Assembly: GCA_027063545.1 (NCBI GenBank)
Contig: JAMORN010000195.1
Span: 1 to 5,118 of the forward strand
Reading direction: 5' to 3'
DNA from: JAMORN01 sp027063545 [NCBI: bacterium]
GTDB lineage: Bacteria > JAMORN01
Length of the DNA: 5,118 nt
A model generated the notes under the pieces. That model did not search any database and was not told where the DNA came from. It saw only the letters and a list, made by a program, of their open reading frames with translations. This document shows, in pieces, positions 1-5,118 of the stretch; position 1 is the first letter of the stretch, and every line of letters starts with the position of its first letter. The position numbers were made by a program, and so were the translations under genes.

Positions 1-1138
1 GATGAAAATTAAATATATCCCCTAATGTAATAGTCTCATCAATTTTTGTAAATATAATTCCATCTAATTTTAACTCTGAGAAATTTTCATATATCATAAG
101 CATGTCCTTCAGCTTTGTAGTAGCTGAAATAAGTAAATATATTCTATCAATAGAAGAGTTTTTTATTATATTAAATATCTCCTGAAGATGTTCTTTTTTT
201 CTTGGACTTCTCCCAGCAGTATCTATAAAAATATAATCAAAACCTGTAAACTTAGCTATTGCATTTTCCAAATTTTCTTTTGTATAACATAACTCAAAAG
301 GTATAGAACTTATATCAGCAAATGTCTTTAACTGCTCTGCTGCTGCTATTCTATATGTATCTAAAGATAACAACACAACTTTTCTTTCTTTTATTATTTT
401 ATTTATTGATGCAATTTTGGCAATTGTTGTAGTTTTACCCACTCCTGTTGGACCTATAAAAGCAACCGTAAAAGGTTTTTTTTCTGGCAATTCTTCTATC
501 TCTTTATTTACTCTAATCTTAGCACTTATATTTTTTATAATAACCTCTCTTAAATAATCAAAATCTTCTATTCTCTCTGGGGGTAGTTTTGTCTCAATCT
601 TTTCTAAAAGCTGAATTGTGAAAGTTTCATCTAATTCTTTATCTCTTAATGTTAAATACCATTTCTGAATATTTTTATGATGATGTTCAAAATTTTCCTT
701 AAAGTTAATTTCTACCAGCTTTTGAACAACAGTTTTTAATTCCTTTATATCCTTCTTTATATCTACTATAGAACTATCAAATCTTTCACTTTTAGCTTCT
801 GTTTTTAATTCTTTATTAATATTCTGTTGAAGATCTGAGAATTTTTTATAAAGATTTCCTACATATGAGTCCCTTGAAATACTACCTCTATTATAAGAAT
901 AAGAAGGTGATGAGGAAGTTTCTATGGTATCTGAAGGGCTTTTTATTGTATTTAATTCCTGAGAAATATCTGTATCAAGAGCCACAATAACTTCATATTT
1001 TTCCTCTGCTATACCTCCAAACATCCCTTTTTTAGGGACCTTTTTGGTATTAATTATTATAATATCCTCTCCTAATTCCTGCTTTGCCTGTAATATAGCT
1101 TCCTTTATACTATTTGCTACATACTTTTTTATTTTCAT
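1..1138 (-). CDS. flhF: Flagellar biosynthesis SRP-like GTPase FlhF (3' end outside window)
   Basis: FlhF is a signal-recognition-particle-type GTPase, related to Ffh and FtsY, that controls flagellar position and number and is stimulated by FlhG. Translating from the ATG at 1138-1136 gives 379 complete codons with no stop or frameshift before the window edge; roughly the last few dozen residues are missing. Seen: the diagnostic N-terminus MKIKKYVANSIKEA with QELGEDIIIINTKKV, a Ser/Pro/Tyr-rich linker (about 62-92), and a Lys/Glu-rich helical region with a His triplet at 152-154 leading into the N domain. The G domain motifs follow: G1 GPTGVGKTTT (229-238), DTYRIAAAEQL (260-270), G3 DTAGR (306-310) and G4 TKID (364-367), followed by ETITLGDIFN. 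A strong ribosome binding site supports the start. The N-terminal extension and the flhA neighbour separate it from Ffh and FtsY. The next gene is probably flhG, but it cannot be seen here. Confidence 0.97.
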   Translation of the reverse strand, partial: MKIKKYVANSIKEAILQAKQELGEDIIIINTKKVPKKGMFGGIAEEKYEVIVALDTDISQELNTIKSPSDTIETSSSPSYSYNRGSISRDSYVGNLYKKFSDLQQNINKELKTEAKSERFDSSIVDIKKDIKELKTVVQKLVEINFKENFEHHHKNIQKWYLTLRDKELDETFTIQLLEKIETKLPPERIEDFDYLREVIIKNISAKIRVNKEIEELPEKKPFTVAFIGPTGVGKTTTIAKIASINKIIKERKVVLLSLDTYRIAAAEQLKTFADISSIPFELCYTKENLENAIAKFTGFDYIFIDTAGRSPRKKEHLQEIFNIIKNSSIDRIYLLISATTKLKDMLMIYENFSELKLDGIIFTKIDETITLGDIFNFH

Positions 1139-1162: not shown

Positions 1163-3238
1163 TTATAAACTCACTCTTTCCTCACTTATTACCTCAAAAT
1201 CTGAAGGCACTTCAGATATAGATATAACATTTAAATTCTTTATATAAGGATGTAAAAGTCTTTTCAATTGTAATCTAAGTACTGGTGATACTAATAAAAC
1301 AGGTACATAACCTTTCATACTTAAATTCTCCACAGCCTTTTTTATATTTTCAACTAATCTAGCCACTGTATCTGGATCCAACACAAGTCTTAAACTCTGA
1401 TTATTATCCGGCTGAAGATTATCTTCTAAGTATTTCTCTGTTTCTGGGGATAAAGTAATAACATGAAGTTTTTTATCACTACTTAATAAACTTGTACATA
1501 TCTGTCTACCTAGAGCATGTCTAACATATTCTGTTAATACATCTGTATTTTTTGTAACTTTTGCATAATCACCCAAGGTCTCTATTATTGTTGATAAATC
1601 CCTAATAGAAACCTTTTCCCATAATAGATTTTGTAATACCTTTTGTATATCTCCTATTTTAAGTAAATCAGGTATAACCTCTTCTACTGCAGCAGGATTT
1701 ATCTTCTTAAGATTTTCTATTAATTGTTTTACATCTTCTCTTGTTAATAACTCATATGCATGATCTTTTATAATCTCTGTTAAATGAGTTGAAATAACAG
1801 CAGGTACTTCTACAACAATATATCCTGCAGCCTCTGCTTTAGACTTTTCTGCTTCTGTTATCCACATAGCATCTAAGCCAAAAGTAGGATCTTTTGTTGG
1901 AATACCTTCTAGTTCTTCCTGTACGTCACCTGGATTTATTGCCATATAATATCCAGGCATAACTTCTGCTCTAGACACTTCTATTCCCTTTATTTTTATA
2001 ACATATTCATTAGGTTTTAAATCTAAGTTATCCCTTATTCTTATTGGGGGGACTTTAAAACCCAAATCTACAGCTATCTGTTTACGTATTAATGTTATTC
2101 TATCTAATAAATCTCCTCCTTGAGCAGGATCTACATAACTTATAAGAGCATACCCTATCTCAAGTTCCATAGGATCAACAAAAAGAAAATCCTCTATCTT
2201 TTCCTCCTGCTCCTCTTCTTCCTTTGTTTCCTCTTTAACTTCTTCCTCTGAAGGTGCTAAAGCTGTATTTCTTGCTGATATATAACCAACACCCATTAAA
2301 AGAGTTCCCAAAGCCATAAAAGTAATCTTAGGAAATCCAGGAACTAATCCTAATAAAAACAAAACTCCTCCTGTTATCATTAAGGCTTTAGATTGGGAAA
2401 ATAATTGCTTGATTAATTCCTGCCCCATATCATGTTTAGATGATGCCCTCGAGACAATAATACCCGCAGATGTAGAGATTAAAAGAGCAGGAATCTGACT
2501 AACCAATCCATCTCCTATTGTTAATTTTGTATATTTTTCTATAATATCAGCAAAACTTCCACCCTCTCTAAAATATCCAATTAATATTCCACCTATTATA
2601 TTAATAATAGTAATAATAATACCTGCTATAGCATCTCCTCTAACAAACTTAGAAGCTCCATCCATAGCTCCATAAAAATCTGCTTCTCTTGCTATTTCTT
2701 CTCTTCTTTTTCTTGCTGTTTCCTCATCTATTAAACCGGCATTTAAATCAGCATCTATAGCCATTTGTTTACCAGGCATAGCATCAAGGGTAAATCTTGC
2801 TGCTACTTCAGCTATTCTTCCTGCACCTTTGGTTATCACAATAAATTGAATAATTACCAAAATAATGAAAATAACAACTCCAACAACAATATTACCCATA
2901 GTAACAAAATTTCCAAATGTTTCTATTACCTTACCAGGATTCCCTGTAGCTAGTATTAAACGTGTAGAAGAAACATTTAAAGAAAGCCTAAATAAAGTGG
3001 TTATAAGTAAAAGCCCAGGAAATATTGAAAAGTCTAAAGGTCTTTCTGTATATATAGTTGTCAGTAGAATAATAATTGCTGTTGCGATATTTAAAGATAA
3101 TAATATATCCATTAACCATGGTGGAATAGGAATTACCATTATTATAACAATTCCTATTACCACCAATGGTATAAGAAACTCTTGTCTTTGCGCTAACTTA
3201 TTAAAAAAATTGGTATTTAATGATAATGTATTTGCCAT
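1163..3238 (-). CDS. flhA: Flagellar type III export gate protein FlhA
   Basis: Complete 691-residue FlhA, the usual length for the family. FlhA sits in the inner membrane at the base of the flagellum, forms a nonameric ring through its cytosolic domain, docks substrate-chaperone complexes and couples export to proton flow. Seen: eight hydrophobic segments at roughly 21-38, 40-61, 70-88, 112-135, 205-222, 243-262, 285-304 and 306-322. The FHIPEP family signature RFTLDAMPGKQMAIDADL is at 148-165. The cytoplasmic loop reads FVRGDAIAG (198-206), and its Asp202 probably corresponds to the proton-relay Asp208 of Salmonella FlhA. A very acidic linker (about 330-350) leads into the substrate-binding domain (351-691), which contains LDAMWI (455-460), the STHLTEIIKDHA helix (483-494) and YVRHALGRQI (571-580). 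The start is chosen because MANTLSL leaves about 20 residues before the first membrane segment, as is typical. It begins 6 bases after the lipoprotein stop, and flhF follows after 24 bases. No key motif is missing. Confidence 0.98.
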   Translation of the reverse strand: MANTLSLNTNFFNKLAQRQEFLIPLVVIGIVIIMVIPIPPWLMDILLSLNIATAIIILLTTIYTERPLDFSIFPGLLLITTLFRLSLNVSSTRLILATGNPGKVIETFGNFVTMGNIVVGVVIFIILVIIQFIVITKGAGRIAEVAARFTLDAMPGKQMAIDADLNAGLIDEETARKRREEIAREADFYGAMDGASKFVRGDAIAGIIITIINIIGGILIGYFREGGSFADIIEKYTKLTIGDGLVSQIPALLISTSAGIIVSRASSKHDMGQELIKQLFSQSKALMITGGVLFLLGLVPGFPKITFMALGTLLMGVGYISARNTALAPSEEEVKEETKEEEEQEEKIEDFLFVDPMELEIGYALISYVDPAQGGDLLDRITLIRKQIAVDLGFKVPPIRIRDNLDLKPNEYVIKIKGIEVSRAEVMPGYYMAINPGDVQEELEGIPTKDPTFGLDAMWITEAEKSKAEAAGYIVVEVPAVISTHLTEIIKDHAYELLTREDVKQLIENLKKINPAAVEEVIPDLLKIGDIQKVLQNLLWEKVSIRDLSTIIETLGDYAKVTKNTDVLTEYVRHALGRQICTSLLSSDKKLHVITLSPETEKYLEDNLQPDNNQSLRLVLDPDTVARLVENIKKAVENLSMKGYVPVLLVSPVLRLQLKRLLHPYIKNLNVISISEVPSDFEVISEERVSL

Positions 3239-3244
3239 ATTTAT

Positions 3245-4891
3245 CTATTCTATTCCTTTATTTATAACAACCTTCTTAGGAAAATAAAAATAGCCCTGTA
3301 TCTCTCTTATTAATAACCCTGAAGAATTTAATTTCACTACCCTGTTATTATGCTCATCACAAATCCAAATATTCCCTTCTCCATCAGCATCTTTATATTC
3401 ATTAACAATTATATAACTTGGTTTATCCAATCCTACATTTATTATATTATCTATTAAAGGAGAGACATTATAGTTCATTTTTATTGGTAATTTAACTTTC
3501 ATCATTCCATAAACTGCATCAAGTATATATAATTCTGATGTTAGTCTATTTATATCCATATCAACAAGTGTTCCAAATCCATAAAGTTTTCCTACAATTG
3601 AATCTGATGCTATATCATATGAATATAAAATATTTTTTCCATAATCAGCTATATAAACATAACCATTATATCCTATTATTTTTGATATATTTAAAAATCC
3701 AGCTTTTCGTCTATATAATGTATCATTTCTTATTATCAGCAGAAAATTTGAATCTAACCTCTCCTCTACAGTAATATAAAAATCTTCTAGATCTGTTAAT
3801 AACTTCAATTTCCCTTTATATGAGAAAACTTTATCAAAATCTTCATATCCTAAAGAATAAATATTACTTAAACTATCATCTGGAGAATATGTTAATACAA
3901 ACAAAGTATTTTTCACTTTCTGGAGTGATGTTATATGCTCAGAAAAACTGTATGTATTAAGAAGTGTTCCATCGGTATAATATTCTCTTATTACATTATT
4001 ATCTACTAAATACAACATATTTGTACCATCTAAAAATTCTAAGTCCTCTACTTGTATACTATCCCACACTATTAAAGGACTCCCTTTTGAAGTAAATTTA
4101 TATATACGTCCCTTATCATCCCTCACCCATATACTCCCAACTTCTTTATATATATCAATTAAAATAGAATCTTCGGTATATGCACCTCTTGTATTTATTG
4201 CCCTAATATATATTGTATCTATTAATTCCTCTAATGGTATATTAAAAATTAGAGATTTATAGTTGGTTAACTCTTTAGATATAGATAACCCACTTTTAGA
4301 ATACCAATAAACTACCACTGTATCATCTAAGTAGCTTGATACTTTTACATTAACATATCCTAATCCACTTCCTATTAAAAATGAAGCATAATTTTTATTT
4401 CCCCATTTAATAAAATTACCATTTTCAATATATATAGAATCTATAGATGGGGGAAAATCTATAAGCTTTATCTCTTTTTTGTACTCATACCATCTGTTAT
4501 TATATAAAAATTTTATTGTTATTGTATCCTTCTCTCTTATTCTATATATAACTGAATCCAGAGAAGAACTATCATCACTAGAAACTTTCTCTTTTATATA
4601 TGGAATGCCTGAATATTCAATAAAAACTGTATCCCTTATAATACTATCTAAAGAAGATTTTCCATTAAATATAACTAAACCTGAAGCAGAAGTCCATTCA
4701 AGATTTTTCACATAATCATTAAAAACAATAATGCCTTTCATTGGTAAACCATAATATTCATCAGGTACAATTGAAAATTTTTCTAAAGGACTATCATCTT
4801 CAAAATCAAAAATTGAACAGCCTGAAAATATTGTAATTATAAATAATAAAGAAAACAATAAGTTAAACTTTATTTTTGAGTTTATAAACAT
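3245..4891 (-). CDS. Predicted lipoprotein with Ig/PKD-like modules and NHL-like beta-propeller, encoded within the flagellar operon
   Basis: I do not recognise this 548-residue protein as a named family. Seen: a lysine-containing n-region (K6, K8), a hydrophobic core (about 9-22) and I-F-S-G-C with Cys25, a plausible though imperfect lipobox (Phe at -3). Ser26 and then an acidic stretch (DFEDD) follow, so it is probably lipidated and exported. Residues about 38-145 and 146-250 look like two beta-rich Ig/PKD-like modules, each with W-x-S-x-S-G-L (W66, W196). From about 252 onward there are repeated blade-like units: GSIWVRDDKGRIYKF (252), NMLYLVDNN (291), GYVYIADYGKN (410), SELYILDAV (452) and GNIWICDEHNNRVVKL (506). 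The last strongly resembles an NHL repeat, suggesting a beta-propeller of about six or seven blades. The ATG overlaps the end of flhB by 29 bases and the TAG stop lies 6 bases before flhA. Codon style matches the neighbours, so recent transfer is not evident. A structural or surface role linked to the flagellum is inference from position only. Confidence 0.85.
   Translation of the reverse strand: MFINSKIKFNLLFSLLFIITIFSGCSIFDFEDDSPLEKFSIVPDEYYGLPMKGIIVFNDYVKNLEWTSASGLVIFNGKSSLDSIIRDTVFIEYSGIPYIKEKVSSDDSSSLDSVIYRIREKDTITIKFLYNNRWYEYKKEIKLIDFPPSIDSIYIENGNFIKWGNKNYASFLIGSGLGYVNVKVSSYLDDTVVVYWYSKSGLSISKELTNYKSLIFNIPLEELIDTIYIRAINTRGAYTEDSILIDIYKEVGSIWVRDDKGRIYKFTSKGSPLIVWDSIQVEDLEFLDGTNMLYLVDNNVIREYYTDGTLLNTYSFSEHITSLQKVKNTLFVLTYSPDDSLSNIYSLGYEDFDKVFSYKGKLKLLTDLEDFYITVEERLDSNFLLIIRNDTLYRRKAGFLNISKIIGYNGYVYIADYGKNILYSYDIASDSIVGKLYGFGTLVDMDINRLTSELYILDAVYGMMKVKLPIKMNYNVSPLIDNIINVGLDKPSYIIVNEYKDADGEGNIWICDEHNNRVVKLNSSGLLIREIQGYFYFPKKVVINKGIE
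3254..3258 (-). promoter_or_regulatory. Possible weak, distant Shine-Dalgarno (AAGGA) for flhA
   Basis: AAGGA occurs in the final codons of the lipoprotein gene (the K-G-I-E end), 15 bases before the flhA ATG. That is longer than the usual spacing. No better purine tract lies closer, so flhA may depend partly on ribosomes finishing the lipoprotein gene 6 bases upstream. Confidence 0.35.
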
Positions 4892-5118
4892 AAGCTATAA
4901 TCTCCGCTACAGCTTCATAATATTCTGGAGGTATTTCTTCACTTATATCAACAGCATCATATAAAGCTCTGGCTAATGGTTTATTTTCAACTATAGGAAT
5001 ATTATTCTCTATTGCTATTTCTCTTATTCTTTCCGCTATTTTTCTCATACCTTTTGCTACAACAATAGGAGCCCTCATTCCCTGTTCATATTGAATAGCT
5101 ATAGCTATAAATGTAGGG
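4863..5118 (-). CDS. flhB: Flagellar export switch protein FlhB, C-terminal fragment (5' end outside window)
   Basis: FlhB is the inner-membrane export-gate protein whose cytosolic C-terminal domain switches secretion from rod/hook to filament substrates. Only 84 complete codons are visible, beginning with P-T-F at 5117. The frame is open to the window edge, so the Met at 5078 is internal and not the start. Seen: P-T-F-I-A-I-A-I-Q-Y, then APIVVAKG, then a helix with IREIA, then VENKPLARALYD, then EIPPEYYEAVAEIIAYVYKLK, which matches the post-cleavage domain of flagellar FlhB along its length. The window begins exactly where the autocleavage motif N|PTH should lie; the one upstream base (C) is compatible with an AAC Asn codon but does not prove it. 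The motif His is replaced by Phe, and one residue is missing between the conserved Tyr and the Met before APIVVAKG, compared with the Salmonella and Bacillus proteins as I recall them. The stop TAA (4863-4865) lies inside the next gene. VVAKG and the flhA/flhF neighbours favour a flagellar protein over an injectisome homologue. Confidence 0.95.
   Translation of the reverse strand, partial: PTFIAIAIQYEQGMRAPIVVAKGMRKIAERIREIAIENNIPIVENKPLARALYDAVDISEEIPPEYYEAVAEIIAYVYKLKNKV
4902..4905 (-). promoter_or_regulatory. Shine-Dalgarno GGAG for the lipoprotein, inside the flhB coding sequence
   Basis: GGAG on the minus strand lies 10 bases upstream of the lipoprotein ATG at 4891, within the last codons of flhB (A-E-I-I-A-Y region). 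Together with the lysine-bearing signal peptide that begins at this ATG, it supports the overlapping start over a later one. The only other possible start nearby is the TTG codon at residue 12, which would remove the positive n-region. Confidence 0.6.

What the first reader, a model, noticed from the sequence alone, without database searches (positions are those of the whole stretch)
3245..4891. Unrecognised surface lipoprotein gene embedded between flhB and flhA
flhB and flhA are usually adjacent, and their products form one export machine. Here a 1.6 kb gene for a probable lipoprotein with Ig/PKD-like modules and a beta-propeller is inserted between them, overlapping flhB by 29 bases and ending 6 bases before flhA. 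Such tight packing means it is co-transcribed with, and possibly translationally coupled to, the export gate. It could be a lineage-specific flagellar component (periplasmic or outer-membrane scaffold, ring or collar) or a passenger fixed by chance. The domain reading is from the sequence; any flagellar function is inference.
Basis: partly seen in the sequence, partly recalled or inferred. Interest (0 to 1): 0.62.

Follow-up and report, generated by a model that had tools for sequence, protein, structure and literature searches.

The report
Propeller lipoprotein in flagellar operon
A gene for a probable membrane-anchored, propeller-shaped protein sits inside the flagellum-building operon of an uncultured bacterium, and similar genes sit at other spots in flagellar operons of distant bacteria, so it may be an undescribed accessory part of some flagella, though this is untested.

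Summary
In detail: a 548-codon ORF (3245-4891, minus strand) overlaps flhB by 29 bases and ends 6 bases before flhA, with a lipobox cysteine (C25). Pfam and NCBIfam give no match over a cut-off (NHL repeat, E 0.012).

It appears to be a very diverged member of a small family for which my paper searches found no description: lipoproteins with two Ig-like modules and seven NHL repeats. I found full-length members in 12 genomes of four phylum-level groups. Six of the 12 lie at flagellar loci, in different places: flhB-X-flhA (only here), flgE-X-motA (two), and after FlhX or a conserved flagellar-operon gene (three). One is undetermined. Five, all of one group, lie elsewhere, beside an unidentified protein.

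All 7 carriers among 386 sampled genomes have FlhA. In 103 of 109 other FlhA loci flhB directly precedes flhA.

Best reading: a lineage-restricted flagellar accessory lipoprotein of the outer membrane, perhaps a ring, collar or stator-scaffold part. Function is inferred. Homology of the window protein is remote (about 20% identity), its Ig part alone found no relative, and structure prediction failed.

The parts
3245..4891 (-). Lipoprotein gene of the Ig-Ig-NHL family, 548 aa (the finding)
   Evidence: ORF; remote full-length similarity to flagellar-locus lipoproteins
4817..4891 (-). Signal peptide and lipobox, residues 1-25 (FSGC, lipid cysteine C25; serine follows it)
   Evidence: Sequence; C25 invariant in 12 aligned members
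4148..4786 (-). Region aligned to two Ig/PKD-like modules, about residues 36-248
   Evidence: Alignment to relatives in which Pfam finds Big_9 in 3 of 5 and PKD in 1 of 5; alone this region found no relative
3248..4147 (-). Region aligned to the seven-repeat NHL propeller, residues 249-548
   Evidence: profile of 7 members matches solved NHL propellers
3257..3367 (-). The one NHL repeat recognisable on its own, residues 509-545, with the C-terminal P-x3-VIN-x-G end
   Evidence: Repeat HMM iE 1.8e-9; Pfam NHL E 0.012
4863..5117 (-). flhB, C-terminal 84 aa, cut by the contig end
   Evidence: TIGR00328 E 1e-33
4863..4891 (-). 29-base overlap of flhB with the lipoprotein gene
4902..4905 (-). GGAG, possible ribosome-binding site, 10 bases before the ATG
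   Evidence: Sequence printed; consensus recalled
3239..3244 (-). 6-base gap between the lipoprotein gene and flhA
1163..3238 (-). flhA
   Evidence: TIGR01398 E 1e-272
2..1138 (-). flhF, cut by the contig end
   Evidence: TIGR03499 E 9.9e-62

Best explanation
The gene encodes a diverged member of a small family of envelope lipoproteins: a lipid-anchored N-terminus, two Ig-like spacer modules and a seven-repeat NHL beta-propeller whose extreme C-terminus probably closes the ring. It works as a lineage-restricted accessory of the flagellum: held in the outer membrane by its lipid, it projects the propeller into the periplasm around the rod and L/P rings or the stators, where the rigid propeller acts as a binding or ring-forming platform (collar, stator scaffold, or shield of the outer membrane around the turning rod). 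Its place in the flhB-flhA operon lets it be made together with the export gate. Shown here: gene, lipobox, family, repeats, linkage to flagellar genes in three groups. Inferred: co-transcription, outer-membrane location, ring formation and every functional step.
For: Six of 12 full-length members are at flagellar loci in three phylum-level groups, at different positions, so the link has survived rearrangement: flhB-X-flhA; flgE-X-motA-motB-fliL-fliM...flhB-flhA in G136, and the same order from flgE to fliL in G274 (FlgE, MotA, MotB, FliL, FliM, FlhB of G136 named by NCBIfam); right after an FlhX-like ORF in G055 and G386; after a HDOD-GAF-AMIN/TPR gene set in G388 that follows flhB-flhA-flhF on the same contig in G055 and G330. 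All 7 carriers among 386 genomes have FlhA, against 174 of 386 overall; in the group of G136 gene and FlhA coincide, 2 and 2 of 4. With the window protein alone as query, the three best other proteins among 3604 held ORFs are the flagellar-locus ones of G055, G274 and G136 (E 2.5e-15 to 2e-14), and in 58 other genomes its only match was the one of G055 (E 2.3e-4). Two signatures unite the family: the Ig-propeller junction in 12 of 12 and the C-terminal end in 10 of 12, against 1 and 0 of 66 other NHL/PKD proteins. Base composition is native (GC3 0.15 against 0.12-0.17 for the neighbours).
Against: Five members (all 5 genomes of G051's group) lie away from flagellar genes, and G387's upstream side is unknown. 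G198 and G330, in the group of G055, have FlhA but no full-length member (assemblies 83% and 79% complete). Most of the 174 genomes with an FlhA match have none, so it is not needed for flagella in general. The window protein is only about 20% identical to the others, on an end branch of 5.82 against a median of 0.34; left out of the profile it scores E 3.2e-19, below many ordinary NHL proteins. Its Ig part alone found no relative. The single-sequence model failed (pLDDT 33). MotA_N was not found in the window's own genome. No experiment bears on function.
Confidence: 0.5

Rival explanations
1. Co-expressed passenger. A general surface or periplasmic NHL/PKD lipoprotein (adhesin, sensor or enzyme-binding platform) that has settled in flagellar operons because it is useful in the motile state, without touching the flagellum.
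For: NHL and PKD proteins are common: 96 of 386 genomes have a match to the 5-row profile at E <= 1e-8. Five members are outside flagellar loci. The position inside flagellar operons changes from group to group.
Against: Three groups at flagellar loci, with 7 of 7 sampled carriers holding FlhA, is more linkage than a random passenger should show; in G136 and G274 it sits inside the operon, right before motA, motB and fliL.
Confidence: 0.28
2. General envelope partner. The propeller works with an exported partner protein of the outer membrane, as the conserved gene pair in G051's group suggests, and the flagellar position in other groups is a secondary link.
For: In all 5 genomes of G051's group the gene follows a gene for a protein of 482-541 aa on the same strand; the three copies compared are 29-35% identical.
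Against: The partner matched no Pfam family in the 2 copies scanned; that it is a beta-barrel is only my reading. No such partner was seen by eye next to the flagellar-locus members.
Confidence: 0.14
3. The window protein is not homologous as a whole: an unrelated lipoprotein with a propeller of its own that landed between flhB and flhA.
For: About 20% identity, very long branch, Ig part without detectable relatives, generic NHL proteins reach similar scores.
Against: Equal length and order of parts, end-to-end alignment with C25, the junction and the C-terminal end conserved, and the best matches are flagellar-locus proteins.
Confidence: 0.06
4. Assembly or binning artefact that joined a foreign gene between flhB and flhA.
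For: A metagenome-type assembly in 355 contigs; the window is one whole short contig.
Against: The ORF overlaps flhB in frame-preserving fashion, both flanking frames are open, base composition matches.
Confidence: 0.02

Closest known systems
FapH ring lipoprotein of Helicobacter pylori (HP0838; PMC11756786, abstract and outline seen)
   Same: Lipoprotein encoded with a flagellar accessory gene (flgP), lineage-restricted, not part of the E. coli or Salmonella motor; forms a ring at the outer membrane.
   Different: Different lineage; no sequence comparison was made here. Its role in guarding the outer membrane is shown by mutants; ours has no experiment.
FlgP / FlgO outer-membrane lipoproteins and FlgT of basal disks and H-rings (PMC12222027, PMC7990780; passages seen)
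   Same: Envelope lipoproteins added to the motor in particular lineages; rings or disks at the outer membrane that help stator scaffolds.
   Different: FlgP-type fold (SHS2-like per PMC12222027); the window protein matched only NHL and DUF6164, both below cut-off, in Pfam.
PG1058 of the type IX secretion system of Porphyromonas gingivalis (PMC5053529, passages seen)
   Same: Lipoprotein with a predicted beta-propeller, at the periplasmic side of the outer membrane, proposed scaffold of an envelope machine.
   Different: TPR, CRD and OmpA_C-like domains instead of Ig-like modules; five-bladed WD40-type propeller predicted; secretion, not flagella.
NHL-repeat propellers (Pfam PF01436; PknD sensor domain 1rwi and designed 'Pizza' proteins)
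   Same: The propeller fold: family profile matches 3wwa at E 6.5e-44 and 1rwi at E 4.8e-29.
   Different: Six blades in PknD and Pizza6 (recalled), seven repeats here; lipid anchor and Ig-like modules; flagellar loci.

Membership tests
Ig-Ig-NHL lipoprotein family defined here | Lipobox cysteine | tested here: met
   C25 invariant in 12 of 12 rows
Ig-Ig-NHL lipoprotein family defined here | Junction [VIL][YF]xxxG[SCA]xW[VIL] between second Ig module and propeller | tested here: met
   12 of 12 members including the window, 1 of 66 other NHL/PKD proteins; pattern written after seeing the alignment, so not independent
Ig-Ig-NHL lipoprotein family defined here | C-terminal end P-x-[VI]N-x-G at the last residues | tested here: met
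   10 of 12 members including the window, 0 of 66 others; same caveat
Ig-Ig-NHL lipoprotein family defined here | Score to a profile built without the window protein above that of ordinary NHL/PKD proteins | tested here: not met
   E 3.2e-19, below many other NHL/PKD proteins. Membership is therefore claimed as probable only
Ig-Ig-NHL lipoprotein family defined here | Seven NHL repeats | tested here: inconclusive
   Seven in G136 and G274, about seven in the other relatives; one recognised in the window protein
NHL repeat (PF01436) | Score over Pfam's gathering cut-off | tested here: not met
   16.1 bits against 20 for the window protein; family members reach E 4.2e-23
Flagellar accessory component | Encoded in flagellar operons across lineages | tested here: inconclusive
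   6 of 12 members yes, 1 undetermined, 5 no
Flagellar accessory component | Carried only by genomes with FlhA | tested here: inconclusive
   7 of 7 carriers among 386 genomes, and 2 of 2 against 0 of 2 in one group; FlhA not sought in the 5 other carriers (G386, G387, G388, G415, G416); MotA_N found in 3 of those 5
Flagellar accessory component | Present in basal bodies or needed for motility or motor structure | not testable with these tools
   Needs experiments
FapH | Sequence or fold similarity to HP0838 | not tested
   Its sequence was not fetched
FlgP / FlgT / MotY type ring proteins | Pfam match to their families | tested here: not met
   Only NHL and DUF6164 below E 1, both under cut-off
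PG1058 (type IX secretion) | TPR and OmpA_C-like domains around a propeller | tested here: not met
   No such match to the window protein

The most novel reading that the evidence does not exclude
An undescribed class of flagellar accessory structure: a ring or collar of lipid-anchored seven-bladed NHL propellers at the outer membrane, kept in flagellar operons of several deep, mostly uncultured lineages and moved between flgE-motA, flhB-flhA and FlhX sites, giving these motors an outer-membrane bushing or stator scaffold of a fold not known from any flagellum in my searches.
Probability: 0.3. Interest if true: 0.72.

Novelty: new variant of a known kind. Interest (0 to 1): 0.5.

Why it matters
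Lineage-specific parts of flagellar motors explain differences in torque and in how the outer membrane stands up to a turning rod, but those known come from a few cultured groups (passages of PMC12222027 and PMC7990780; abstract of PMC11756786). If this family belongs to the flagellum, it adds a fold, the NHL propeller, that my searches did not find linked to flagella, and gives a gene marker with which motors of uncultured lineages can be imaged and tested. If it is a passenger, it still shows that the tight flhB-flhA junction tolerates a 1.6 kb gene.

Tried and rejected
Close relatives of the window genome: none available; all sampled genomes are kin only at domain level. A scan of named genomes with the protein found none (46 stretches matched a pattern, none a relative). 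The structure job used the single sequence and failed (mean pLDDT 32.8); I ran no fold search on it. Artefact and chance ORF were considered and rejected. Identity between named and unnamed loci was sought by blastn at 85% or more; none. Membership by profile score alone was rejected as a proof, because the window protein left out of the profile scores below ordinary NHL proteins. The E-values are inflated for the 7 carriers, since all 7 are rows of that profile; the five not in the profile scored 1.6e-115 to 1.4e-73, the next protein 7.2e-39. Paper searches with NHL, propeller, lipoprotein, PKD and flagellar terms found no description of such a flagellar protein; most papers in their listings were not opened, and subscription journals are mostly missing from that library.

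Full report
What is there. The window is one whole contig (C195, 5118 bases) of an assembly of 1.57 Mb in 355 contigs, 82.7% complete. On the minus strand it reads flhB (C-terminal 84 aa, cut by the contig end), the ORF 3245-4891, flhA, flhF (cut). Overlap with flhB is 29 bases and the gap to flhA is 6 bases. Contig C263 carries genes that I read as fliO, fliP, fliQ and fliR, then flhB up to profile position 238; C195 begins at 258. The ORF is real by any count, of native composition (GC3 0.151 against 0.162 in flhA and 0.174 in flhF), and starts with a signal peptide and lipobox. Pfam gives NHL at E 0.012, under its cut-off, and NCBIfam nothing.

The usual order. Among 109 other FlhA loci (29 of the best unnamed and the 80 named loci kept) 103 have flhB next to flhA with a gap of -20 to 181 bases; in 3 no flhB was found upstream, and 3 had only 56-708 bases upstream. 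So a 1.6 kb gene between them is unusual, and none of the 103 has one.

Relatives. With the window protein alone, 58 other genomes gave one match, in G055 at E 2.3e-4. That protein stands behind an FlhX-like ORF and aligns over residues 227-548 (22% identity), both proteins ending in VxNxGIE. From it the group of G055 gave full-length members in 4 of 6 genomes. A profile of these five found, in 386 genomes, five further full-length or near full-length members: G274 (E 1.6e-115), G136 (2.9e-100), G193 (6.1e-79), G051 (1.2e-74), G325 (1.4e-73); the next protein, 7.2e-39, is a propeller part of a 2446-codon frame. The group of G051 has the gene in 5 of 5 genomes. A 12-row profile found the same 7 carriers in the 386 genomes; all 7 are rows of that profile, so their E-values there are inflated.

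Where they lie. G136 and G274: between flgE and motA, in a run that in G136 goes on through motB, fliL, fliM, fliN-R and flhB to flhA (FlgE, TIGR02530, MotA, MotB, FliL, FliM and FlhB of G136 named by NCBIfam; the rest by reading). G055 and G386: right after an FlhX-like ORF; the two ORFs are 52% identical over 64 residues, and G055's reaches TIGR00789 at E 2.1e-16 but under its cut-off. In G386 a TPR gene precedes that; its homologue in G055 (49% identity) lies on the flhB-flhA-flhF contig. G388: after HDOD, GAF and AMIN/TPR genes, the set that follows flhB-flhA-flhF in G055 and G330. G387: the gene begins 36 bases from the contig end, and its downstream neighbours are not flagellar by reading. 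G051, G193, G325, G415, G416: behind a protein of 482-541 aa and with no flagellar gene recognised by eye in the 4.7-20 kb read. In total 6 of 12 at flagellar loci, 1 undetermined, 5 not.

With flagella or not. 174 of 386 genomes match FlhA at E <= 0.001, a count that may include injectisome homologues and one marginal match; all 7 carriers are among them, each at E 1.4e-200 or better. In the group of G136 the 2 of 4 genomes with the gene are the 2 of 4 with FlhA. G198 and G330 have FlhA and no full-length member, but are 83% and 79% complete. MotA_N was found in 7 of 13 genomes searched, 6 of them carriers (G055, G387, G388, G416, G051, G325) and not in the window's own genome. The carriers fall in few groups, so the seven are not seven independent cases.

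What the protein is. In relatives Pfam sees NHL in 5 of 5 rows scanned (counting the window's weak match), Big_9 in 3 and PKD in 1. Cutting the propellers of G136 and G274 gives seven repeats each, and a repeat model finds about seven in the other relatives and one in the window protein. The 7-row profile matches designed NHL propellers and the PknD propeller in the PDB (E 6.5e-44 and 4.8e-29). I infer a seven-bladed propeller closed by the conserved C-terminal strand; this is not shown by a model, since the single-sequence prediction failed.

How sure is kinship. Identity to the window protein is 18-23% and its branch is 5.82 against a median of 0.34. Left out of the profile it scores E 3.2e-19, below many ordinary NHL/PKD proteins. 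In its favour: with the window protein as query the best three other proteins of 3604 held ORFs are the flagellar-locus ones of G055, G274 and G136, though an ordinary NHL protein (L199) comes fourth and the best single stretches are weak; the junction and C-terminal signatures separate 12 and 10 of 12 members from 66 other NHL/PKD proteins (1 and 0). The patterns were written after seeing the alignment. The Ig part alone found no relative. I call it a probable, remote member.

How it may work. Flagellar motors of several lineages carry added envelope proteins: FlgO, FlgP and FlgT, MotX and MotY in Vibrio, PflA, PflB and FlgP in Campylobacterota (PMC7990780 and PMC12222027, passages), and the FapH lipoprotein ring, which guards the outer membrane during rotation (PMC11756786, abstract and outline). 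PG1058 of the type IX system is a lipoprotein with a predicted propeller at the periplasmic face of the outer membrane, proposed as a scaffold (PMC5053529, passages). By analogy I propose that this lipoprotein sits in the outer membrane (serine after the lipid cysteine, sorting rule recalled from E. coli) and holds a rigid propeller on two Ig-like spacers in the periplasm near the rod, the L/P rings or the stators. Its place before motA-motB-fliL in G136 and G274 points mildly to the stators. The five non-flagellar members show that the fold also serves elsewhere, or that the gene moved.

Verdict. It is a new variant of a known kind, since added envelope lipoproteins of motors are known and this architecture was not found in print in my searches.

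Noticed in passing
L136 (contig C151 of the window's genome) 2318-6420: Flagellin, a 321-aa protein without Pfam match, a weakly FliK-like 519-aa protein (Flg_hook E 0.0038, under cut-off) and a stand-alone FlhX-like ORF of 88 aa (TIGR00789 E 5.7e-30, under cut-off) in a row.
   Followed up: partly
L131 87-347 and L132 4333-4542: FlhX-like ORFs of G055 and G386 look shortened at the N-terminal side compared with the 88-aa ORF of the window's genome, and stand right before the propeller lipoprotein gene.
   Followed up: partly
L202, L203, L204, L215, L216: In G051's group the propeller lipoprotein follows a gene for a 482-541-aa protein with no Pfam match in the two copies scanned; possibly an outer-membrane barrel, by reading only.
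   Followed up: partly
L139, L219, L036: HDOD, GAF and AMIN/TPR-type genes follow flhB-flhA-flhF and two to three further genes in G330, G055 and the KSB1 bacterium 4484_219, a shared unexplained tail of the flagellar operon.
   Followed up: partly
L131 3126-4400, L132 329-1606, L134 25-1452: A 424-475-aa protein near the lipoprotein gene in G055, G386 and G387 (37-63% identical among them) with no Pfam match in the copy scanned.
   Followed up: partly
L018, L026, L084: Three FlhA loci with no flhB found upstream; in L026 a protein that reads like a STAS anti-sigma-factor antagonist precedes flhA.
   Followed up: no
G390 (genome of L037, Fibrobacteres bacterium): 22 separate matches to the NHL/Ig profile in one genome of 3.8 Mb.
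   Followed up: no
window's genome G000: MotA_N (PF20560) was not found; the assembly is 82.7% complete, so it may be missing or diverged.
   Followed up: no
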